Positions 1,102 to 10,950 of a DNA stretch of 64,000 nt are shown piece by piece; the first letter of the stretch is position 1; each line of letters starts with the position of its first letter. Source of the stretch: Rudaea sp. (lineage in GTDB: Bacteria; Pseudomonadota; Gammaproteobacteria; Xanthomonadales; Rhodanobacteraceae); the NCBI GenBank assembly GCA_031291055.1, contig JARLJU010000340.1:1-64000 (forward strand), read 5' to 3'. The notes beneath the pieces are model-generated. The model made no database searches, was not told the DNA's origin, and saw nothing but the letters and a program-made list of their open reading frames with translations. Position numbers and translations under genes: made by a program.

Positions 1102-2136
1102 CTACAGGAATTCCGCCTGCAGATCGACGCTCGAGCGCCGGCCGATATCGGCGTAGTGCGCACGCAGCCACTGCCGTGTCGTTGCGCTTCCGCTGTCCCG
1201 GAGCTCGCACAGAAAACCCCAGTCGGGATTCATCTTCGACGCGACCGGATGCGCGGTCATGGCTGCGTCGTCGCGGATCGAATGGATCAGCATCTGCTTC
1301 ATCTCGGAGGCCTTCAGCTTGCCGTGTTCGATCAGACGCGTGACGAAGGCGATTGCGCGCATCTCGCGCATCAGCGACGAGTTGAAGCTGATTTCGTTGA
1401 TGCGATTGAGGATTTCCGGCGCGGTCTTCGGCACGCCGTGGCGCACGATGGGATTGATGTGGATGATGACGACATCGCGGCTGTCCGATGCATAGATCAG
1501 CGGAAAGATCGCGGGGTTGCCGATGTAGCCGCCATCCCAGTAATGCGCTCCTTCGATTTCGATGGTCTGGAACAGGATGGGAAGGCAGGCCGAAGCAAGC
1601 ACGGTATCGGGGGTGACTTCGGCACGATTGAAGATCCGTACCTTGCCGGTTTCGACATTGGTGGCGCACAAGTGGATGGCCATTCCCCTGGTGCGGCGCA
1701 ATTTCTCGAAATCGACGTGTTTCTCGAGTACCTGCCGCAGCGGATTGAAGTTGATCGGGTTGAGCTGGTACGGCGAAAACAGCCGCGTCATCGTATCGAA
1801 CATCCAGTAGAACGGGGATTGCTCGACGGGCAACGCGCGTCCCGACCAGTCACGCAACGGCCGCACCGGATTGTAGGCAGAACCGGCATCGGCGATCGCC
1901 TTCCAGAAGGCGCTTAGGCGTTCGCGCGCATGGTCGCGGTCGCCGTCGGTCAGCGCATCCGCTAGAACCACCGCATTCATCGCGCCCGCGCTCGTCGCAC
2001 TGACGGCCTCGATATCGATGCGGCCATCGTCGAGAATCTGGTCGAGCGCGCCCCAGGCAAAGGCGCCGTGCGAACCGCCGCCCTGCAATGCAAGGTTGAC
2101 GGATTTGCGCGTGGACTTTTTCTTGCGGTTGGCCAT
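1102..2136 (-). CDS. patatin-like phospholipase family protein
   Basis: The 344-residue protein has the three landmarks of bacterial patatin-like lipid acyl hydrolases. The first is a glycine-rich oxyanion-hole loop GGGSHGAF (residues 19-26). The second is a nucleophile elbow SATSAG with Ser49, where the usual first Gly of G-x-S-x-G is Ala. The third is the DGG motif carrying the catalytic Asp201 (YWDGGYIGN). The Ser-Asp dyad would cleave acyl esters of phospholipids or other lipids. There is no signal peptide; the basic N-terminus (MANRKKKSTRKS) fits a cytoplasmic or peripheral membrane location. The start was set at the ATG directly before this Lys-rich stretch, because the open frame upstream is unlike the family. 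It is divergent from the borosin cluster; no functional link is evident. Confidence 0.9.
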   Translation of the reverse strand: MANRKKKSTRKSVNLALQGGGSHGAFAWGALDQILDDGRIDIEAVSATSAGAMNAVVLADALTDGDRDHARERLSAFWKAIADAGSAYNPVRPLRDWSGRALPVEQSPFYWMFDTMTRLFSPYQLNPINFNPLRQVLEKHVDFEKLRRTRGMAIHLCATNVETGKVRIFNRAEVTPDTVLASACLPILFQTIEIEGAHYWDGGYIGNPAIFPLIYASDSRDVVIIHINPIVRHGVPKTAPEILNRINEISFNSSLMREMRAIAFVTRLIEHGKLKASEMKQMLIHSIRDDAAMTAHPVASKMNPDWGFLCELRDSGSATTRQWLRAHYADIGRRSSVDLQAEFL

Positions 2137-2413
2137 GAGGTCCGATCCAGGGCAGTGATCAACGCGCGGTTGGATCGCCATTGATCAGGATGATCGTACC
2201 TGCATTCGCGCCGCTGCGCCGCACACCGCACAAAAGACCGGCGCCGTCGGCCACGCAATGGGGGTGCCGCTGCAAGTTGAGCAGATCAAGGCAAGTCAGT
2301 CTTCCGCTCTCGCGATCACGTTTCGATGATGTCGGCTTGCGCCCGGCGCTTTTCCACCGGCTTGCGATAGACTGCAGACCACGTGTCGAAAAAACGGGCA
2401 ACAGGGGTCTCGT

Positions 2414-3235
2414 TTGAACAGCAATTCGTCTTCCGCCCGCTCGTCGGGGAGCTTGGTCTGTGTGGGCATCGGCATGACGCTGGGCTCGCACATCACTCCG
2501 CTGGCGCGCAGCCACATCGAAAAATCGGACGTCGTGTTTACCGCGGTTTCCGATGGCATCGTCGAGCTGTGGTTGACCGAAATGCATCCGGATGTGCGCA
2601 GCCTGCAGCCGTTCTACCAGGAAGGCAAATCGCGAATGGACACGTATCGGGAAATGGTCGAGGCCATGCTCGCCGAGGTCCGCGCCGGAAAACAGGTTTG
2701 CGGCGCGTTCTATGGGCATCCCGGCGTGTTCGCCTGGCCGCCGCACAGGGCGATACAGATGGCCCGCAGTGAAGGTTATCGCGCGCATATGGAGCCTGGC
2801 ATCTCGGCGGAGGATTGCCTGTACGCCGATCTGGGTATCGATCCGGGCAAGGTCGGCTGCCAGCATTTCGAAGCCAGCCAGTTGTTGTTCTACAAACGTC
2901 GCATCGACCCAACGGCTTATCTGATCCTCTGGCAAGTCGGCGTGGCCGGCGACCAGTCGCTGGCGCGATTCTCCACTGGCGCGGCATACCGGCAGGTGCT
3001 CGTGGATGTGCTTGCGCAGGACTACCCGCTGGATCATGAAGTCGTCATCTACAGGGGAGCGACGCTTCCCATCCACAAGCCGCGCGTCGAGCGGATCGCA
3101 CTCGGCAAGCTGCCGGAGGCGGACATCGATCTTGAAGTGACGGTCGTGATTCCTCCGGCCGCGGCGATGGAGTCGAATCCGGAGATTCGCGCGCGCCTGG
3201 CCGCACTTGACTTGCCGATGGGCACGCCGGCTTGA
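2414..3235 (+). CDS. split borosin peptide alpha-N-methyltransferase (SonM-like)
   Basis: This 273-residue protein belongs to the tetrapyrrole/diphthine methylase fold. It carries the features of the borosin enzymes that methylate backbone amides of a peptide with SAM. Visible are the N-terminal VCVGIGMTLGSHIT loop (residues 15-28), Y68, R74 and Y78 (the same Y-x5-R-x3-Y spacing as the catalytic residues of fungal OphMA), a YGHPG SAM-binding loop (100-104) and MEPGISAEDCLYADLGIDP (126-144). Unlike fungal borosins, the substrate is not fused, so this is the split type known from Shewanella SonM/SonA. The candidate substrates are the two small proteins encoded downstream. Translation starts at a TTG with AGGGG seven bases upstream; the stop overlaps the TTG of the acetyltransferase. 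Family assignment rests on recalled motifs and the precursor context, both strong. Confidence 0.92.
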   Translation: MNSNSSSARSSGSLVCVGIGMTLGSHITPLARSHIEKSDVVFTAVSDGIVELWLTEMHPDVRSLQPFYQEGKSRMDTYREMVEAMLAEVRAGKQVCGAFYGHPGVFAWPPHRAIQMARSEGYRAHMEPGISAEDCLYADLGIDPGKVGCQHFEASQLLFYKRRIDPTAYLILWQVGVAGDQSLARFSTGAAYRQVLVDVLAQDYPLDHEVVIYRGATLPIHKPRVERIALGKLPEADIDLEVTVVIPPAAAMESNPEIRARLAALDLPMGTPA

Positions 3236-3903
3236 CTCGCGTCATCGCGCTGACGGATTTTGATTTAGAGACGGAACGCCTGCGCTTGCGTCCGCTGCAG
3301 GCCTGCGACGAGGCGCTGTACTGCGGCCTGTATACCGACGCGGAAACGATGCGCTACATCGGCGAGCCGCTGGCGCCGGTGCGAGTCGCACGCTGCTTTC
3401 GCAAGGTCCTCTGCCTGATGTATAAACAACCGATCGAGTGGTTGTCCTTGACGGTTCTGGACAAAGCTACGCAGCTGCCGGTCGGCATCTGTGGCGTGCC
3501 GGCATTTGACGCTACCGCCAGCCGGCTTGAAGTGGGCATGATGTTGCGTCGCCAGGCGCGTACCAGAGGATTGGCAAGAGAGGGCCTGGAGGCGCTGGTG
3601 CGGAAGCTGTTTTCAGTATTGTCTGTCGGCGAGATATGGGTAGAGTATTCACCGGAACATTCGGCTGCCGGCGGGTTGGTGAGAAGCATGGGTTTTTCCC
3701 CCCGCGCTGAACCGGTGACCGCGGGTGAAAGTCTCGGGAAGTGCATCTGGTCCGCCTGCCGAGAGACCTGGTACAGCACCGCCGGCGATGTTGACAGACA
3801 AGGGAGAGTTCATGTCGAGCGTAGTCCGGTTTCTGGAAACAATGGGACGAAATGCCGGGCTGAGGCACGCAGCCTTGCCAGCCCTGTACAAGGCTCTGAG
3901 TGA
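3232..3903 (+). CDS. GNAT family N-acetyltransferase of the borosin cluster
   Basis: The N-terminal 180 residues form a RimJ/RimL-like GNAT domain: ETERLRLRPLQ opening, GICGVPAF strand, VGMMLRRQARTRGLAREGLEAL acetyl-CoA region (Q/R-x-x-G-x-A type) and a final strand before GFSPR. The enzyme would transfer acetyl from acetyl-CoA to an amine. In this operon a precursor side chain or N-terminus is the natural guess, but that is inference. Translation starts at TTG in a TTGA overlap with the methyltransferase stop, indicating coupling. The last 40 residues (after WYSTAG) are low in family resemblance and read out of frame through the first 92 bases of precursor gene 1. The original stop may have been lost, or the overlap may couple translation. 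Confidence 0.8.
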   Translation: MTRVIALTDFDLETERLRLRPLQACDEALYCGLYTDAETMRYIGEPLAPVRVARCFRKVLCLMYKQPIEWLSLTVLDKATQLPVGICGVPAFDATASRLEVGMMLRRQARTRGLAREGLEALVRKLFSVLSVGEIWVEYSPEHSAAGGLVRSMGFSPRAEPVTAGESLGKCIWSACRETWYSTAGDVDRQGRVHVERSPVSGNNGTKCRAEARSLASPVQGSE

Positions 3904-4072
3904 GCAACGGGTCGACCAGGACGCGCAATGGGCGATTCTGCGCGGCGATCGAGACCGCCTCCAGACATTGCTTGGAGCCAGGCGCGGGCTGATTTGTGCG
4001 TTAATGTCGCCGGAAGGAGATATCGACGAGAAAGTCGACCGGGAAACTCGTCCGATGGCTGGGGCAGGATAG
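3812..4072 (+). CDS. borosin precursor protein 1, core LICALM
   Basis: The 86-residue protein resembles SonA-type split borosin precursors. Residues 1-56 form a small helical binding domain (MSSVVRFLETMGRNAGLR, then ALYKALSEQRV and DAQWAILRGDRDRLQTLLG, with the D-x-x-x-L-x-x-L-L end typical of the family). A short tail holds a hydrophobic segment (GLICALM, residues 59-65) and then a charged end that includes RPMAGAG. By analogy with SonA, the hydrophobic residues of the tail are the expected sites of backbone N-methylation. The start has a good ribosome binding site (AGGGAGA). The gene overlaps the 3' end of the acetyltransferase gene in another frame and is followed by a hairpin before precursor 2. 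Confidence 0.85.
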   Translation: MSSVVRFLETMGRNAGLRHAALPALYKALSEQRVDQDAQWAILRGDRDRLQTLLGARRGLICALMSPEGDIDEKVDRETRPMAGAG

Positions 4073-4104
4073 CATCTTGCACAAATATACAAAGTCGCTC
4101 GCTA

Positions 4105-4141
4105 TTGGCTGTCGAGCGGCTCTGTACGCGTATACAGCCAA
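4105..4141 (+). promoter_or_regulatory. hairpin between the two precursor genes
   Basis: An 8-bp perfect inverted repeat (TTGGCTGT / ACAGCCAA) encloses a 21-base loop that itself contains the partial dyad CTGTA-CGCGTA-TACAG. It lies in the 86-base gap and ends six bases before the AAGGGGA ribosome binding site of precursor 2. There is no T-tract, so simple termination is unlikely. It could protect an mRNA end, adjust the ratio of the two precursors, or act as an operator. Confidence 0.4.
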
Positions 4142-4158
4142 CTACCAAGGGGAATACC

Positions 4159-4443
4159 ATGTCGAACGTCATCGGCTTTCTTGAAAGCGTGGGAAAGGAC
4201 GCGAAGTTGCGTTGTGCCGCGAAAGAGGACCTGGAACTCGCGCTGGTCAGCGCGCAGGTCGATCCGGAATTTCAAGCTGCAATATTGGATGGGGATCACA
4301 AATCGCTTGAGGTATTCCTCGGCGTCAAGCCTGTTGTTTGCTGTGGCATGGCGCCCGGCAAGGAAGACGACGACGAGGGTGAGGAAAGTCCGTCCAAGGA
4401 AGACGAGATCACAGCGCAGTCGGCAACTCGCTGCGCGGCCTGA
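4159..4443 (+). CDS. borosin precursor protein 2, core PVVCCGM
   Basis: This 94-residue protein is a paralogue of precursor 1. It starts MSNVIGFLESVGKDAKLR, aligns through the helical binding domain (residues 1-55, ending DGDHKSLEVFLG) and then diverges. The tail begins with KPVVCCGMAP (57-66), followed by a long acidic run and ends RCAA. The short hydrophobic VVCCGM stretch sits where SonA is methylated, so it is the best guess for the modified core. The vicinal cysteines could form a disulfide or bind a metal. The acidic follower may be removed or may keep the product soluble. A strong AAGGGGA ribosome binding site precedes the ATG. That two different cores are served by one methyltransferase is inference from the layout. 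Confidence 0.88.
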   Translation: MSNVIGFLESVGKDAKLRCAAKEDLELALVSAQVDPEFQAAILDGDHKSLEVFLGVKPVVCCGMAPGKEDDDEGEESPSKEDEITAQSATRCAA

Positions 4444-4454
4444 GAGATCCGACG

Positions 4455-6245
4455 GTGTGTCCATGGGGCTGGTTTCGCGCGCTTTTTTTTGCCGGGTGGA
4501 CCAGCCTTGCTTTGCTGCTACTCCCGGGCGCGGCCCTTGCGTCTGCGCCCGATGAGCCCGCGCAGCTGCTGAAATACGCTGACGCGATAAAATCGGAAAA
4601 CAACGCCGAGTTCGTCGATATCCTCAAAAAGCTGGGCGACGCTTCGGCAACGCTGCCGTCGTCGCAACAGCTGTACCTGCGGTATCTCAATGCTTGGCAG
4701 CGGGGATACAGCGGCGACTACGAGGCCGCGATTCCGATGCTCAACGCGATCATCGACCAATCGACCGACGTCACCTTGCGATTTCGCGCAGGCGTCTCCG
4801 CCGTGAACATCCTGGCCATCGCGGCGCACTACGACGAGGCGTATTTGCGATTGAGCCAGTTGCTCGATCTGCTGCCGCATATTTCCGATCGGGATGCCAT
4901 AGAGCAGGCATTCGTCGTCGCTGCGATCCTGTACAACCAGGCCGGCCAATACGATCTTGGATCGAGCTATGCGGAAAAATTGTTTGCCGAAGGCACCAAT
5001 GGTGCGAATGCCTGCAAGGGCGTTCAGTTGAAGAACGAGGCGCTCTACAAGAGCGGAAAGCTGGAAGCGTTCAACAACGAATTCCAGGCGGGAATCGATA
5101 CCTGCGTAAAAGTCAACGAACCATTGTGGACGAACCTGATCCGCACCTATGTTGCGACTTTCGATATAGAACAAGGTCGTGTCGCTGAAGCGATCGCGCT
5201 TTTGAAGAAATACTACGATGAAGCGCAGCGCACGCATTATCCAAGGCTGATGTCGGAATTCGACTCCATATTGGCGCAGGCGTACTGGAAATCCGGTGAT
5301 GTTGTCGACGCAAGGCGATATGCGCAAAGCGCAATCGACAAAAGTGTAAAGAATCAGATAACCAAGCCACTGGTTGATGCGTACCGGGTGCTGTACCAGG
5401 CGGCACAAAAGGAAGGCGACTATCAGTCCGCGCTCGCGTTTCACGAAAAGTACGCCGCTGCCGACAAGGGTTATCTGAACGACGTCAGTGCCCGGACGCT
5501 GGCCTACCAGATGGTGTCGCACCAAGTGACTGCGAACAAACTGCAGATCGACTCGCTGAACAAGCAGAACCAGGTGCTGCAATTGCAGCAGGCACTCGAC
5601 AGGAAAGCGGCAGAGACGGGCCGCCTGTACGTTGCACTGCTGCTCAGCGTTCTGGGATTCATCGCATTGTGGGCTTACAAGACCAAGCGGTCGCAGTTGC
5701 GCTTCAAGACGCTGGCCAGGCGCGACGGCTTGACCGGGATATTCAACCGCCAGCATTTTGTCGAAGCAGCCAAGAGCAGCCTGCAATATTGTGCAAAATC
5801 CGCAAGGGAAGCCTGCGTGGTCGTTATCGACTTGGATCACTTCAAGCTGATCAATGACGCGCACGGCCATGCTGCCGGAGATATGGTGTTGAAACGGGCG
5901 GTATCGGCCTGCCAGGCGCATCTGCGCTCGATCGATAGTTTCGGTCGTCTTGGTGGCGAGGAGTTCGGAATTGCGCTGCCGGACTGCACGTTGGAGACGG
6001 CGTTGATCCGCGCCGAAGAACTGCGCGTGGCCATCGCCGAGCTTGGCGAAGACGCGGACCTGGATTTCACCGTTTCGGCCAGTTTCGGCATCGCATCAAC
6101 GACCGGGTCGGGCTACGACCTGCGGCAGTTGCTCATTGATGCGGATAACGCGCTCTACGAAGCCAAGCGCGAAGGACGCAATCGCGTTTCCGCGTGCCAG
6201 AGCCGTACCTCGGTCGGCGTTCAATCCGGATCGAACCAGGTCTGA
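4455..6245 (+). CDS. TPR-GGDEF diguanylate cyclase, membrane-anchored sensor
   Basis: The 596-residue protein starts at GTG only 11 bases after the precursor 2 stop. It has a signal sequence (residues 1-31), a long helical periplasmic part with TPR-like repeats (about 40-380, YSGDYEAAIPMLN and similar), one transmembrane helix (about 390-410, VALLLSVLGFIALWAY) and a cytoplasmic GGDEF domain. The active-site loop is GGEEF near residue 500, with the DLDHFKLINDAHGHAAGD substrate segment before it. An inhibitory I-site RSID sits five residues upstream. It is therefore expected to make cyclic di-GMP from two GTP with product inhibition. The periplasmic repeats would sense a protein or ligand. Close spacing allows co-transcription with the borosin genes, but a functional tie is unproven. 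Confidence 0.9.
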   Translation: MCPWGWFRALFFAGWTSLALLLLPGAALASAPDEPAQLLKYADAIKSENNAEFVDILKKLGDASATLPSSQQLYLRYLNAWQRGYSGDYEAAIPMLNAIIDQSTDVTLRFRAGVSAVNILAIAAHYDEAYLRLSQLLDLLPHISDRDAIEQAFVVAAILYNQAGQYDLGSSYAEKLFAEGTNGANACKGVQLKNEALYKSGKLEAFNNEFQAGIDTCVKVNEPLWTNLIRTYVATFDIEQGRVAEAIALLKKYYDEAQRTHYPRLMSEFDSILAQAYWKSGDVVDARRYAQSAIDKSVKNQITKPLVDAYRVLYQAAQKEGDYQSALAFHEKYAAADKGYLNDVSARTLAYQMVSHQVTANKLQIDSLNKQNQVLQLQQALDRKAAETGRLYVALLLSVLGFIALWAYKTKRSQLRFKTLARRDGLTGIFNRQHFVEAAKSSLQYCAKSAREACVVVIDLDHFKLINDAHGHAAGDMVLKRAVSACQAHLRSIDSFGRLGGEEFGIALPDCTLETALIRAEELRVAIAELGEDADLDFTVSASFGIASTTGSGYDLRQLLIDADNALYEAKREGRNRVSACQSRTSVGVQSGSNQV

Positions 6246-6333: not shown

Positions 6334-6407
6334 CAGCTGCGCTTCTTCTATGCGACCAAGCGCCCCCATAATGGCTGACATTTTATTTCTTGCGGAGAAA
6401 TTCAGCC

Positions 6408-8498
6408 ATGCAATTTCGTCCGCTTGTCGCGGCGGTGCTGATCGGTATCAGTGCCATTGCCCACCCTGCAGAATCCGATCAAACGCTGCCGGTGATCGAG
6501 GTCACAACTTCGAAGCTGCCCGAGCCGGTCGACCAGACGCCTGCGATGATCAGCATCGTCGACGGCGACGAATTGAACAGCCGCGGCGCGTCCAACATGG
6601 CCTCCGCACTGGACCTGGTTCCGGGCGTCGAGGCGCCGGCGGGCGGCGACGCCGGACCGTCGAGCGCGGTGCCTTCGTTCTGGGGCCTGCACGAATTCGA
6701 TGCTTTCCTGCTGGTGGTGGATGGCGTGCCCTGGGGCGGCGCGTTCAATCCAATGATCACCACGTTCGACTTGAACGACGTGCAACGCATCGAAGTCCTG
6801 AAGGGAGCCGCACCGGTCATGTTTGGCGCGACCTCTTTCGTGGGCGTCGTGCAGGCGCTCCACTATCCGGCGGGCCAGGCCTCCAATGAAGTCGACATCG
6901 CTTATGGCAATCACGATTCGTGGAGTGGCTCGGCGGCAATCGCGCTGCCGCAGTCGGGCGACTACAAGCAGTCGTTCGCGATCGACGGTGAGAATCTCGG
7001 ATTTTCGGACCCGCGCGAGGTCGTAAAGAACGGGCAGGCCCTGTACCGCGGCTCGCTGAGCCTCGAGGACAGCACGTTGACAGTCGATGCCAACCTGTCG
7101 ATCGTCCGCGACGTGCCACCCAGCCCCGTCATCCGGGTCGGTACGACGCTCACTCCCGCGACGCCGATCGATGCCAATTTCAATCCGGCCGACGCCAGGA
7201 TCGACCAGGACCAAAACCACCTTGCCCTGGGATATACGCGCAGCGTGGGATGGGGTGAGTGGAGCACTACCATCTCGGCAACCCATTCCAACATCACCGA
7301 CATCCGCGCGTTTCTGCACCCGGATCTGAGCGGCACCGCCGATACCCAGAACCAGAGTCGCCTGATCGACGACGACTATTTCGATACCCACCTGACCCAT
7401 CTGTTCGGCAACAGTGTCAGCCTCACCGTCGGCGCCGACGCGCTTTACGGACACGGCACCCAGACCACCCTGAACGGCAACAGTGCCTATACGGTGCCAC
7501 TGGACGGATCCGTACTGCCGCCGCCGACAACGGCGGTGACCGTCAACGAAATCGGCGTGGTCGACGATCGCCGCGATTTCCTTGGGCAATACGCACAGGT
7601 CGACTGGAAGCCGGACAATCAATGGGATGTCGCGGCCGGCCTGCGCCTGAACGAGACCAACGAGAACAAGTTCTCCTCCGACCTGGTCGATCCCGATCCG
7701 CTGGTGTCCGAATCCGACAAACGGAATGTCGTCAAGCCGACCGAAACGCTGGGCACCAGCTACCGCTTCTGGCAGAGCGGCCCCGACGAAGCGGTGCTCT
7801 ATGCCGATTTCCGCAATGCCTTCAAGCCTTCGGCGCTCGACTTCGGACCGGACTACCAGCCCGCCGTGCTGCTGCCCGAGACGGCGAAAAGCTACGAAGC
7901 AGGCCTCAAGGGAGCTGCCATCGACGGTCGACTGACCTGGCAGACCGAAGTGTTCCTGTTGAATTTCAAGAATCTTGTCGTGCCCACCGCCGCCGGAGAT
8001 CTGGTCAATGCTGCAGGGGAACAGTTGAAGGGTGGTGAGTTCGAAGCACGCTTGCAAGTCGCCCCCGACCTCGCACTGGCGGGCAATCTCGCCTACCACG
8101 ATGCGCATTTCACCCAGTACCTGTTCGCCGATCCCAACACCGGCAACTACGTCGATGTGGCCGGAAGGGCCCTGCCGCTCTCTCCGCACGTCCTGGCTTC
8201 GGCAGGGATTCTCTACACGCCGAAGACCGGCTTCTACACTACCGTCGTCGGCAACTTTGTCGGCCGACGTTACCTGGACGAGGAGAACACGGCGCCTGTC
8301 GGCGCCTATGCGACCCTGGCCTCGACCGTCGGCTATCGCTTTGAACGCTACGCGGTGTCCGTCGAAGGCACCAACCTGTCCAATCGCCGCCCGCCTGTTA
8401 CGTCCAGCGAATTCGGCAGTGAATCGTTTTATCTGCTCAATGGCCGCATGGCCTGGTTGAAATTGAGCTATTGCCTTGATGCAAAGGGCTGCGGCTAG
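6408..8498 (+). CDS. TonB-dependent outer-membrane receptor
   Basis: The 696-residue product has a signal peptide (MQFRPLVAAVLIGISAIAHPAES). It continues with a plug domain (about residues 30-150: PVIEVTTSKLPEPVDQTP, LLVVDGVPWGGA, VQRIEVLKGAAPVMFGATSFVGVV) and a C-terminal 22-strand-type barrel ending in an aromatic-rich strand. TonB receptors import siderophores, vitamins, sugars or metals across the outer membrane using TonB-ExbBD energy; the substrate cannot be told here. The start was placed at the ATG preceded by GGAG rather than the TTG 18 bases earlier. The next gene downstream is a second, unrelated TonB receptor. Confidence 0.9.
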   Translation: MQFRPLVAAVLIGISAIAHPAESDQTLPVIEVTTSKLPEPVDQTPAMISIVDGDELNSRGASNMASALDLVPGVEAPAGGDAGPSSAVPSFWGLHEFDAFLLVVDGVPWGGAFNPMITTFDLNDVQRIEVLKGAAPVMFGATSFVGVVQALHYPAGQASNEVDIAYGNHDSWSGSAAIALPQSGDYKQSFAIDGENLGFSDPREVVKNGQALYRGSLSLEDSTLTVDANLSIVRDVPPSPVIRVGTTLTPATPIDANFNPADARIDQDQNHLALGYTRSVGWGEWSTTISATHSNITDIRAFLHPDLSGTADTQNQSRLIDDDYFDTHLTHLFGNSVSLTVGADALYGHGTQTTLNGNSAYTVPLDGSVLPPPTTAVTVNEIGVVDDRRDFLGQYAQVDWKPDNQWDVAAGLRLNETNENKFSSDLVDPDPLVSESDKRNVVKPTETLGTSYRFWQSGPDEAVLYADFRNAFKPSALDFGPDYQPAVLLPETAKSYEAGLKGAAIDGRLTWQTEVFLLNFKNLVVPTAAGDLVNAAGEQLKGGEFEARLQVAPDLALAGNLAYHDAHFTQYLFADPNTGNYVDVAGRALPLSPHVLASAGILYTPKTGFYTTVVGNFVGRRYLDEENTAPVGAYATLASTVGYRFERYAVSVEGTNLSNRRPPVTSSEFGSESFYLLNGRMAWLKLSYCLDAKGCG

Positions 8499-8742: not shown

Positions 8743-10950
8743 GTGAAGAGCTTTTTTCAATTCCCGGCCGCCTTGGCCGTTGGGGTAGTCTGTGCCATTG
8801 CTTTTCCTGCCGCAGCGCAGGACGCGACGCAAACACTTGAGCAGGTCAACGTCAAAGACCGTGCTTCGCAGGACGATACGCGTCCGAAGCTGCAGCACAT
8901 CATGAAGGAGGTCGACGGGGCACAGATCACGGTGACCAAGAAGACATCGATCACCAAGCTCGACAACATTCCAACCGTCGTCGACAACAATTTGCGCGAG
9001 CTGTTTTCGCAGACGCCGGGCTTGTTTGTCTCCGAGCAACAGACCGGAAGCCAGTTCAATCTGAGCTATCGCGGTATCGGCAATCCGCAGGAATCCGAAT
9101 TCGTCTCCGTGATGCAGGATGGCATACCGCTGGAAGGTGACTGGATCGGTTTCCCGACGCTGTACGTGTTGCCGTTGCCGCAGACCATTTCGCAGGTGCA
9201 ACTGATCCGTGGCGGCAGTTCGCTGCTGTACGGACCGGAGCCCGGCCCGGTCGTGAACTTCATCAGCCGCCTGCCGGATCCGAATCGCGAATCCGGCGGC
9301 TACAGCGAAAATATCGTGGGCAAGAATGGACTATCCGGCACGTTCAACAGCATTTCCGGAACCAAGGAACAGTGGGACTACCTGCTGGATGCGCACTATC
9401 GCACCGACGACGGCCAGCGCGAAAACGGTGGTTCGATCCTCAAGGGCGCGGACATGCATATCGGCTATCGCCCCGACGATGCAGGTTACTGGGCGCTGGA
9501 TTTCCACGGCTACGCACTGGCGGCGGGCGATCCCGGCAAATATGGATTCCCGGTTTTCCAGCGTGACGAGGACTTCACGCCCACGCCGTACAACAAGGAT
9601 TGGGTCAATCGTTACGTGTTGTCGCTCAGCAATCAGCAGCACTTCGGCCGTGATGCGGAACTGATTACCAAGATCTGGAGCGGTTATCAGAACCAGACCA
9701 CGCGTGCCGCCGCAGCGCTGCAGGATGTGCCGATGCCGACTTATCCCGCATCCTCGACAGTGCAGGACGAAACATTCCGTTTCACCGGCATCGATTCGCG
9801 TCTCGTCGATCATTGGGGCCACGGCAACGCATTCACGGCGGGGTTTGTGCTGTATCACTCCGATGCGCCATTCCGGCAGTGGGTGGATTCAAACCTCTAT
9901 GCCGACCGCGCGGACGAATTCACGCCAGCCTGCAGCGCGAGCGTGAAGGTCAATTGCCTGACCCTCAGCCAGCAGCGATCGACCGATTACGGTGCGATCT
10001 TTGCCGAGAATGTGTTCCGCCTGCCGGGTGAGTGGCACATCGTGCCGTCGGTGCGGCTGGAACGCGAAAACGTGGATATCAATGAAAGCGACCACGGCCT
10101 GCGCGGCACGCCAGGGCAGTTGCCGCTGGTCGATCGCTCCGTCGACCACACCGTGCCGCTGTTCGGTCTGGGCGTGGGCAACGATTTCGGCCACGCCAAC
10201 GAGACCTACTTCAACGTATCGCAGGGATGGCGGCCGGTGCGCTACTACGACATCGGCTCGCCGTTCGGCAATCTGGACCCGACCGCCGCAAACGATCCGA
10301 CCCCGACCCATGTATTGTCATTTGAAGGTGGCGTGCACGGTACGCCGGTCAATGGCTTGTTCTATGACGCCAGCCTGTTCTGGGTCAACGTCAAGGATCG
10401 CATCGAAAGCCAGCCCACGGGCGTTGGCAGCAATACGATCGATGTCAATACCGGCGATACGCGCAATCGCGGCTTCGAGGGACAGATAGACTACGATTTC
10501 CTGGCTGCCCGCGATCCGCACAGCACACAGCATTTCTCCGTATTTGCAAACGTGAGTTTGCTCAATGCGCGCTTCACGGCCTCGCGCACGCCGGCGCAGA
10601 TCGGCAAGATTCCCGCCTTTTCGCCGCGCTATCTGGCACGTGCCGGACTGGTCTATCGCGAGGACAAGAAGCTCAAACTGGCGCTCTCGGCGGTTTCCGC
10701 CGCCAGCCAGTATGCGCAGGATTCCAACAATCCATTTGGAACCGCCGGCACCGATTCATTCATTCCGGCCAAGGTGCCGCAATATACGGTATGGGACTTC
10801 TCCGGCGATTATTGGCTGGTGCCGAACGTGCGTCTGCTCGCTGGCATATCCAACATCGGCGACAAGAAATACTACGACCGCGTATTCTCGAACGGCATCG
10901 AGCCCGGATTGGGACGCACCTACTACGGTGGCTTTTCCTACGAGTTCTGA
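8743..10950 (+). CDS. TonB-dependent receptor, FecA-like
   Basis: The 735-residue protein begins at GTG after a GGGGGA ribosome binding site and has a clear signal peptide ending FPAAAQD. The plug domain (about residues 60-180) contains IPTVVDNNLRELFSQTPGLFVSEQQ and VQLIRGGSSLLYGPEPGPVVNFISR; the barrel ends GRTYYGGFSYEF with the terminal Phe needed for BAM insertion. The plug resembles Fe(III)-dicitrate-type receptors, so ferric citrate or a related chelate is a reasonable guess. There is no N-terminal signalling extension of the FecA/FecR type. A 12-bp hairpin follows the stop, then a histidine kinase and response regulator, which may sense the same stimulus. Confidence 0.9.
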   Translation: MKSFFQFPAALAVGVVCAIAFPAAAQDATQTLEQVNVKDRASQDDTRPKLQHIMKEVDGAQITVTKKTSITKLDNIPTVVDNNLRELFSQTPGLFVSEQQTGSQFNLSYRGIGNPQESEFVSVMQDGIPLEGDWIGFPTLYVLPLPQTISQVQLIRGGSSLLYGPEPGPVVNFISRLPDPNRESGGYSENIVGKNGLSGTFNSISGTKEQWDYLLDAHYRTDDGQRENGGSILKGADMHIGYRPDDAGYWALDFHGYALAAGDPGKYGFPVFQRDEDFTPTPYNKDWVNRYVLSLSNQQHFGRDAELITKIWSGYQNQTTRAAAALQDVPMPTYPASSTVQDETFRFTGIDSRLVDHWGHGNAFTAGFVLYHSDAPFRQWVDSNLYADRADEFTPACSASVKVNCLTLSQQRSTDYGAIFAENVFRLPGEWHIVPSVRLERENVDINESDHGLRGTPGQLPLVDRSVDHTVPLFGLGVGNDFGHANETYFNVSQGWRPVRYYDIGSPFGNLDPTAANDPTPTHVLSFEGGVHGTPVNGLFYDASLFWVNVKDRIESQPTGVGSNTIDVNTGDTRNRGFEGQIDYDFLAARDPHSTQHFSVFANVSLLNARFTASRTPAQIGKIPAFSPRYLARAGLVYREDKKLKLALSAVSAASQYAQDSNNPFGTAGTDSFIPAKVPQYTVWDFSGDYWLVPNVRLLAGISNIGDKKYYDRVFSNGIEPGLGRTYYGGFSYEF

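What the first reader, a model, noticed from the sequence alone, without database searches (positions are those of the whole stretch)
2414..4443. Split borosin RiPP cluster: SonM-like N-methyltransferase, GNAT and two precursor proteins
The methyltransferase has Y68, R74 and Y78 with the Y-x5-R-x3-Y spacing of the catalytic residues in fungal OphMA, plus YGHPG and MEPGISAE motifs. Two small proteins directly downstream share a SonA-like helical binding domain. A GNAT enzyme is translationally coupled between them. Together this predicts a backbone-N-methylated peptide product not described for this organism, possibly also acetylated.
Basis: partly seen in the sequence, partly recalled or inferred. 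Interest (0 to 1): 0.92.

Follow-up and report, generated by a model that had tools for sequence, protein, structure and literature searches.

The report
Split borosin cluster with sensor enzyme
This bacterium carries genes for small peptides whose backbone is probably decorated with methyl groups, and right behind them sits a membrane sensor enzyme that many related bacteria keep beside the same genes, which suggests that such peptides may be signals.

Summary
ORF 2414-3235 is a borosin backbone N-methyltransferase (best PDB match SonM, E 9e-83, then OphMA-type enzymes) with SonM's catalytic Y/R/Y in register. Two small proteins (3812-4072, 4159-4443) carry a SonA-like five-helix binding domain. 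A GNAT ORF overlaps the methyltransferase by 4 nt and lies before both precursors. As a split borosin it is a new member of a known family.

Its sensor part accompanies these methyltransferases: within 6 kb of 96 of 108 methyltransferase rows among 148 genomes and of 86 of 106 in a second order, including a locus about 90% identical to Shewanella SonM-SonA. Elsewhere the sensor carries a histidine kinase or stands alone, or the cyclase is fused to the methyltransferase. I infer that SonM-type borosins are peptide signals read by a TPR receptor. Methylation, export and binding are untested; a within-locus pairing test was inconclusive; a GGDEF domain is already named in one borosin figure legend, so part of the link is in print.

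The parts
2414..3235 (+). Borosin alpha-N-methyltransferase (SonM-like), 273 aa
   Evidence: phmmer vs PDB: SonM 7ltc_A E 8.8e-83, dbOphMA fusion 8.4e-58, OphMA 7.3e-54; Pfam TP_methylase; Y68/R74/Y78 conserved
3232..3903 (+). GNAT acetyltransferase (Acetyltransf_3), 223-aa ORF; last 92 nt overlap precursor 1 in another frame
   Evidence: Pfam E 8.6e-19; GNAT relative in 12 of 41 named loci, with the same 4-nt overlap in L031, L033, L049, L059, L060
3812..4072 (+). Borosin precursor 1, 86 aa: binding domain about 1-54, predicted core about 59-66 (3986-4009)
   Evidence: profile hit in own genome E 8.6e-20 (this sequence is a row of the profile); core by register with SonA, inferred
4159..4443 (+). 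Borosin precursor 2, 94 aa: five-helix binding domain 2-54, predicted core about 59-65 (4333-4353), then Pro66 and acidic follower
   Evidence: AlphaFold2; SonA chains are Foldseek ranks 1-7; profile matches SonA
4455..6245 (+). Membrane TPR-GGDEF diguanylate cyclase, 596 aa, proposed receptor
   Evidence: Pfam GGDEF E 1.3e-39 and weak TPR hits; hydrophobic segments near residues 10-29 and 389-409
4530..5624 (+). TPR sensor domain, probably periplasmic, with long exit helix
   Evidence: AlphaFold2 pLDDT 94.1; Foldseek; C162 and C192 invariant in 57 rows
5718..6185 (+). GGDEF catalytic domain with GGEEF and RxxD

Best explanation
An operon that makes split-borosin peptides and, most likely, the receptor that reads them. 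Supported by homology: the methyltransferase docks the binding domain of each precursor and methylates backbone amides of the short hydrophobic stretch behind it. Inferred: the GNAT acetylates a precursor or the released peptide; the cores are cut out by a protease not encoded here; the N-methylated product, perhaps membrane-permeant, reaches the periplasm; it binds the TPR solenoid of the neighbouring membrane protein, whose long exit helix passes the signal through the membrane to the GGDEF domain and so changes c-di-GMP. Other lineages keep peptide and TPR sensor but exchange the output for a histidine kinase.
For: Borosin part. Receptor part: sensor hit within 6 kb of 96 of 108 methyltransferase rows in 148 genomes (147 relatives and the window's own); by genome 83 both, 1 methyltransferase only, 3 sensor only, 61 neither (recount and Fisher p 1e-36, not corrected for phylogeny; dropped: weak hits G090 and G041, two pieces of a broken copy in G142). 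Sensor in 39 of 41 named loci. In a second order 86 of 106 rows. A SonM-SonA-like locus has it directly after the precursor stop. 18 of 31 loci with a sensor but no methyltransferase within 6 kb still have a precursor directly upstream of it. Arrays repeat precursor-sensor pairs (L104: 5 sensors, 3 precursors, 1 methyltransferase). One-frame fusion sensor-GGDEF-methyltransferase, 859 aa (L121). Output swap to histidine kinase by Pfam in L143, L145, L276, L277, L278; TPR-only proteins in L274. Precursor cores covary with the sensor beyond GGDEF (partial Mantel r 0.22, p 0.002, the least that 500 permutations allow), not with GGDEF beyond the sensor (r 0.01, p 0.42).
Against: No exporter or protease is conserved: apart from methyltransferase, precursor/GNAT and cyclase no ORF cluster occurs in more than 7 of 42 loci. 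So how a cytoplasmic product reaches a periplasmic domain is unexplained. In loci with several precursor-sensor pairs the cognate pairing beat all swaps in only 3 of 6 for core plus tail, 5 of 6 for the binding domain, 3 of 6 for the whole precursor. The sensor may simply evolve faster than GGDEF, which would also give the Mantel result. TPR folds are generic. 13 of 31 orphan sensor loci show no precursor. In a class-wide sample only 2 of 8 methyltransferase loci read have the sensor, so the link belongs to one subfamily.
Confidence: 0.55

Rival explanations
1. An ordinary split-borosin biosynthetic cluster whose TPR-GGDEF neighbour controls when the peptide is made or released, sensing some other ligand.
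For: Close gene order and fusions fit regulation as well as reception; 13 of 31 orphan sensor loci lack a detected precursor; within-locus pairing is inconclusive.
Against: The sensor part, not the output, is what is kept; precursor-sensor pairs occur without the methyltransferase near.
Confidence: 0.27
2. The modified precursor acts as a whole protein inside the cell, for instance its binding domain or tail touches the cyclase or the methyltransferase-cyclase complex, and no small peptide is released.
For: No protease or exporter is conserved; a methyltransferase fused to the cytoplasmic end of the cyclase exists (L121); tails differ strongly between lineages, acidic here, Lys/Pro/Ala-rich in genus relatives.
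Against: Cores covary with the sensor rather than with GGDEF; the sensor is predicted outside the cytoplasm.
Confidence: 0.14
3. Tetrapyrrole-type methylase with unrelated small proteins and chance neighbours.
For: Pfam names only the TP_methylase superfamily and finds no family for the small proteins.
Against: SonM and OphMA-type enzymes are the PDB hits, SonA is the precursor hit, and the gene order recurs.
Confidence: 0.02

Closest known systems
SonM-SonA of Shewanella oneidensis (type IV split borosin)
   Same: Homologous methyltransferase with the same Y/R/Y triad and a separately encoded precursor with a five-helix binding domain.
OphMA (fungal fused borosin)
   Same: Homologous methyltransferase domain (E 7e-54).
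   Different: In OphMA the core is fused to the enzyme; here the precursors are separate genes.
RRNPP pheromone receptors (Rap, NprR)
   Same: TPR solenoid similar in fold to the predicted sensor (Rap 8rsv_A TM 0.63, NprR 4gpk about 0.50); gene next to that of a small peptide precursor.
   Different: Those are cytoplasmic receptors of imported, unmodified peptides in Firmicutes (PMC9765709 abstract in a search listing, and recall); this one is predicted membrane-bound with the TPR outside and a GGDEF output. TPR folds are generic; no common descent is claimed.
Membrane-bound GGDEF diguanylate cyclases
   Same: GGDEF domain with GGEEF; RxxD site in the window's copy.
   Different: This TPR sensor family is found with borosin genes in most genomes that I searched.

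Membership tests
Split (type IV-like) borosin pathway | Borosin-family alpha-N-methyltransferase, not a cobalamin or diphthine methylase | tested here: met
   SonM E 8.8e-83; all 25 sequences matched are borosin enzymes
Split (type IV-like) borosin pathway | Active-site Tyr/Arg/Tyr (SonM Y58, R67, Y71) | tested here: met
   alignment; conservation; roles from PMC8429565 section 9
Split (type IV-like) borosin pathway | Separately encoded precursor with five-helix borosin binding domain | tested here: met
   Foldseek E-values are weak (best 0.89), as the domain is small
Split (type IV-like) borosin pathway | Backbone N-methylation of the core | not testable with these tools
   needs mass spectrometry
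Split (type IV-like) borosin pathway | Core at the very C-terminus, as in SonA | tested here: not met
   a follower of about 20-28 residues comes after the predicted core. The definition in PMC8429565 asks only for a separate enzyme and precursor, so this marks a variant
Diguanylate cyclase | GGDEF domain with intact signature | tested here: met
   GGEEF in 112 of 117 sensor-bearing ORFs, RxxD found in 59 of 117
RRNPP receptor family | Cytoplasmic TPR receptor with HTH or phosphatase function | tested here: not met
   predicted membrane protein with GGDEF; compared as an analogue only

The most novel reading that the evidence does not exclude
SonM-type split borosins are signals rather than antibiotics or toxins: a Gram-negative pheromone system in which a backbone-N-methylated peptide is read by a periplasmic TPR receptor with exchangeable outputs (diguanylate cyclase, hybrid histidine kinase, or none), including the founding SonM-SonA pair of Shewanella.
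Probability: 0.4. Interest if true: 0.9.

Novelty: new variant of a known kind. Interest (0 to 1): 0.66.

Why it matters
[quoted passage not shown] A sensor that stays with the pathway in two bacterial orders, through fusion, duplication and exchange of its output, gives a concrete and cheap test of what these peptides do, in a laboratory organism (Shewanella oneidensis). If right, a class of RiPPs becomes a signalling system that feeds c-di-GMP.

Tried and rejected
Tetrapyrrole or diphthine methylase: rejected. NCBIfam gave only sub-threshold methylase hits for the enzyme and nothing for the precursors. Single-sequence PDB searches of the precursors gave nothing meaningful; profiles were needed. 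Lysine acetylation of the core by the GNAT: not supported, since the core of precursor 1 and those of several GNAT-linked relatives have no lysine. GNAT and cysteine: scoring one precursor per locus in 51 loci, 12 of 12 GNAT loci have a Cys in the core against 7 of 39 without GNAT, but L175, L200, L203, L205 and L263, L264, L270 have a GNAT near and no Cys in the core, L177 and L209 have Cys and no GNAT, and relatedness is not corrected: a correlation only. GNAT-precursor fusion: in five genus relatives (L049, L196-L199) the GNAT frame stays open into the precursor, and in L084 on a contig end, but a Met at the usual precursor start, with AGGGGA upstream of an ATG in L049, leaves separate translation possible. 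Pairing by within-locus swaps: inconclusive. Small ORFs before 12 orphan sensors without a detected precursor: nothing convincing. Papers by Imani 2022 and Lee 2024 are not held; Cho 2022 was not tried. From recall only: Imani 2022 reports over 1600 pathways, and Lee 2024 shows the peptidase shewasin A cutting a borosin precursor; neighbours such as GGDEF or TPR proteins may be noted in these papers. In one search a GGDEF profile contaminated by the L121 fusion put a false GGDEF label on methyltransferases; a clean profile was used. In one search I set the number of genomes to 149 instead of 148; one search corrects it (61 neither, not 62).

Full report
What was checked. The ORFs lie where the finding says. 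The genome is a fragmented assembly (5.07 Mb, 371 contigs, completeness 99.82, contamination 5.37). The closest named loci are from Rhodanobacter, Dyella, Luteibacter and Frateuria, so the host is most likely in the Rhodanobacteraceae (inference).

Methyltransferase. phmmer against the PDB gives SonM (E 8.8e-83), then dbOphMA, OphMA and MroMA; nothing else passes E 0.01. Y68, R74 and Y78 align with SonM Y58, R67 and Y71, residues whose mutation cuts SonM turnover (PMC8429565, section 9). The stretch between the first Tyr and the Arg is three residues shorter than in SonM.

Precursors. A profile of 54 precursors finds SonA in the PDB at E 1.1e-12. That profile includes SonA-like rows; a profile of 35 without them still has SonA on top at 4.4e-5. 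AlphaFold2 predicts helices 2-13, 15-18, 22-31, 36-44 and 47-54 of precursor 2 with high confidence and a disordered tail. The top seven Foldseek hits are SonA chains (TM 0.50-0.77 by target length), with weak E-values (best 0.89). By register with SonA, which is methylated at 63 and 65 (PMC8429565), the cores are about VVCCGMA in precursor 2 and GLICALMS in precursor 1. Which residues are methylated is not known.

The neighbour that matters. The next gene, 4455-6245, has an N-terminal hydrophobic segment, a TPR region, a second hydrophobic segment near residue 390 and a GGDEF domain with GGEEF and RxxD. In the 41 named loci the sensor-cyclase is found in 39, a precursor in 37 by profile, a GNAT in 12. 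The two without a sensor are L056, whose contig ends 121 bases after the methyltransferase, and L070. One of the 39 is an alphaproteobacterial assembly (L071).

Co-occurrence. I searched the sensor part alone in the same 148 genomes (147 relatives and the window's own) as the methyltransferase: 83 genomes have both, 1 the methyltransferase only, 3 the sensor only, 61 neither (weak hits in G090 and G041 counted as absent). Of 108 methyltransferase rows (all except G090 and two further pieces of a broken copy in G142), 96 have the sensor within 6 kb; of the 150 sensor rows that I took from a list that was cut off, 115 have a methyltransferase within 6 kb. Inside the window's own genus eight other genomes have both and seven neither. 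None of these tests is corrected for phylogeny.

Sensors away from the methyltransferase. I fetched all 35 such rows as 31 loci. In 18 a precursor lies directly upstream on the same strand (profile E < 1e-4); in 13 none was found. Several loci are arrays of precursors and sensors (L031, L065/L104, L084, L108, L109, L126).

A second order. In 295 genomes of the order of G492, 70 have the methyltransferase and 71 the sensor (profile E <= 1e-15), 63 both, 7 and 8 one only, 217 neither. In most of these genomes the sensor search scored only 6 candidates, so some absences are uncertain. 86 of 106 methyltransferase rows have the sensor within 6 kb. I read 40 regions chosen by me from these rows, 20 of the 22 rows of one genus (g382) and 20 others; all 40 have a sensor-family protein near, at a looser cut-off (E <= 1e-5). 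The row of g382 without a sensor within 6 kb (G770:C1:209463) was not among those read. Genus g382 looks like Shewanella: in L239 the methyltransferase is 92% identical to SonM and the precursor 87% to SonA (my count of the alignments), and the frame of the TPR-GGDEF gene opens directly after the precursor's stop codon. In the family of G492, 21 of 22 regions read have the sensor. In an even draw of the whole class 12 of 369 genomes have a methyltransferase hit, two of them very weak, and of 8 loci read only 2 have the sensor. So the link is a trait of the SonM-like subfamily, not of every split borosin.

Fusion and exchange of outputs. L121 encodes TPR sensor, GGDEF and methyltransferase in one 859-residue frame; in G146:C41 both hits lie in a frame of 857 residues, by coordinates only. 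In L143, L145, L276, L277 and L278 the sensor protein carries histidine kinase domains by Pfam. L187-L191 and L266 match my sensor and kinase profiles. L274 has TPR-only proteins. In several loci where my profile missed a precursor there are small ORFs between methyltransferase and sensor that look like SonA by eye (for example L187, L188, L189); this is my reading, not a scored result.

Sensor structure. The model (pLDDT 94.1) is a helical solenoid with a 66-residue exit helix. Two cysteines are invariant in 57 rows, which would fit a disulfide outside the cytoplasm. Foldseek's hits include TPR proteins with bound peptides: LGN complexes, Rap with pheromone (8rsv_A, TM 0.63), RapF, NprR; they also include other TPR proteins such as APC/C subunits. 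TPR folds are common, so this is a hint only.

Covariation. Of 80 precursor-sensor pairs 74 were used; duplicates and cut-off sequences were dropped. Core distance follows sensor distance after allowing for GGDEF distance (r 0.22, p 0.002 with 500 permutations) and not the reverse (r 0.01, p 0.42); 65 pairs without the SonA-like rows give 0.21 and 0.03. In 6 loci with several pairs, cognate pairing beat every swap in 3 for core plus tail, 5 for the binding domain and 3 for the whole precursor. So the covariation may reflect shared descent or a faster-evolving sensor.

GNAT. It is Acetyltransf_3 (the RimJ/RimL-like group, recalled); the only NCBIfam hit is a sub-threshold one to RimJ. It overlaps the methyltransferase by 4 nt here and in five named loci. 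Its target is unknown.

Literature. PMC8429565: abstract, part 1 of Results, section 9 and Discussion read; its held text has no occurrence of diguanylate, GGDEF, tetratricopeptide or TPR. PMC11395268: abstract, introduction, references, legends and passages read; its Figure 1 legend names a GGDEF domain, so part of the link is in print; I could not see the figure. PMC11285071: passages only. Searches for borosin with diguanylate and with tetratricopeptide found no paper, with GGDEF only PMC11395268, in a library that lacks most subscription journals. The main genome-mining papers are not held, so I do not claim that the TPR-receptor link is unpublished.

Verdict. The finding is right and, as a borosin cluster, ordinary for its family. 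The conserved receptor-like partner raises it.

Noticed in passing
L049, L084, L195-L199 (same-genus loci): Precursors in the window's own genus carry long Lys/Pro/Ala-rich tails instead of the acidic tail, and in several the GNAT frame stays open into the precursor.
   Followed up: partly
window 2414-3235 versus L031: The window's methyltransferase is closer to that of Rhodanobacter sp. MP7CTX1 (81%) than to the hits of its own genus (65-73%), which hints at transfer of the cluster or a mixed assembly.
   Followed up: no
L104:3344-15120: Five TPR-GGDEF genes around one methyltransferase, three of them with a precursor directly before.
   Followed up: partly
L121:1788-4367: Single 859-aa frame joining TPR sensor, GGDEF and borosin methyltransferase.
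   Followed up: partly
L274:6095-9304: Three TPR-only proteins in a row after a borosin precursor and methyltransferase: receptors without an output domain.
   Followed up: partly
window 6390-8498 and 8743-10950: Two TonB-dependent receptors follow the cluster on the same strand.
   Followed up: no
window 1102-2181 (-): Patatin-like phospholipase upstream on the other strand.
   Followed up: no
L033:7277-7637: The first precursor is split over two overlapping frames, so it is broken or misread; the second precursor of that locus is intact.
   Followed up: no
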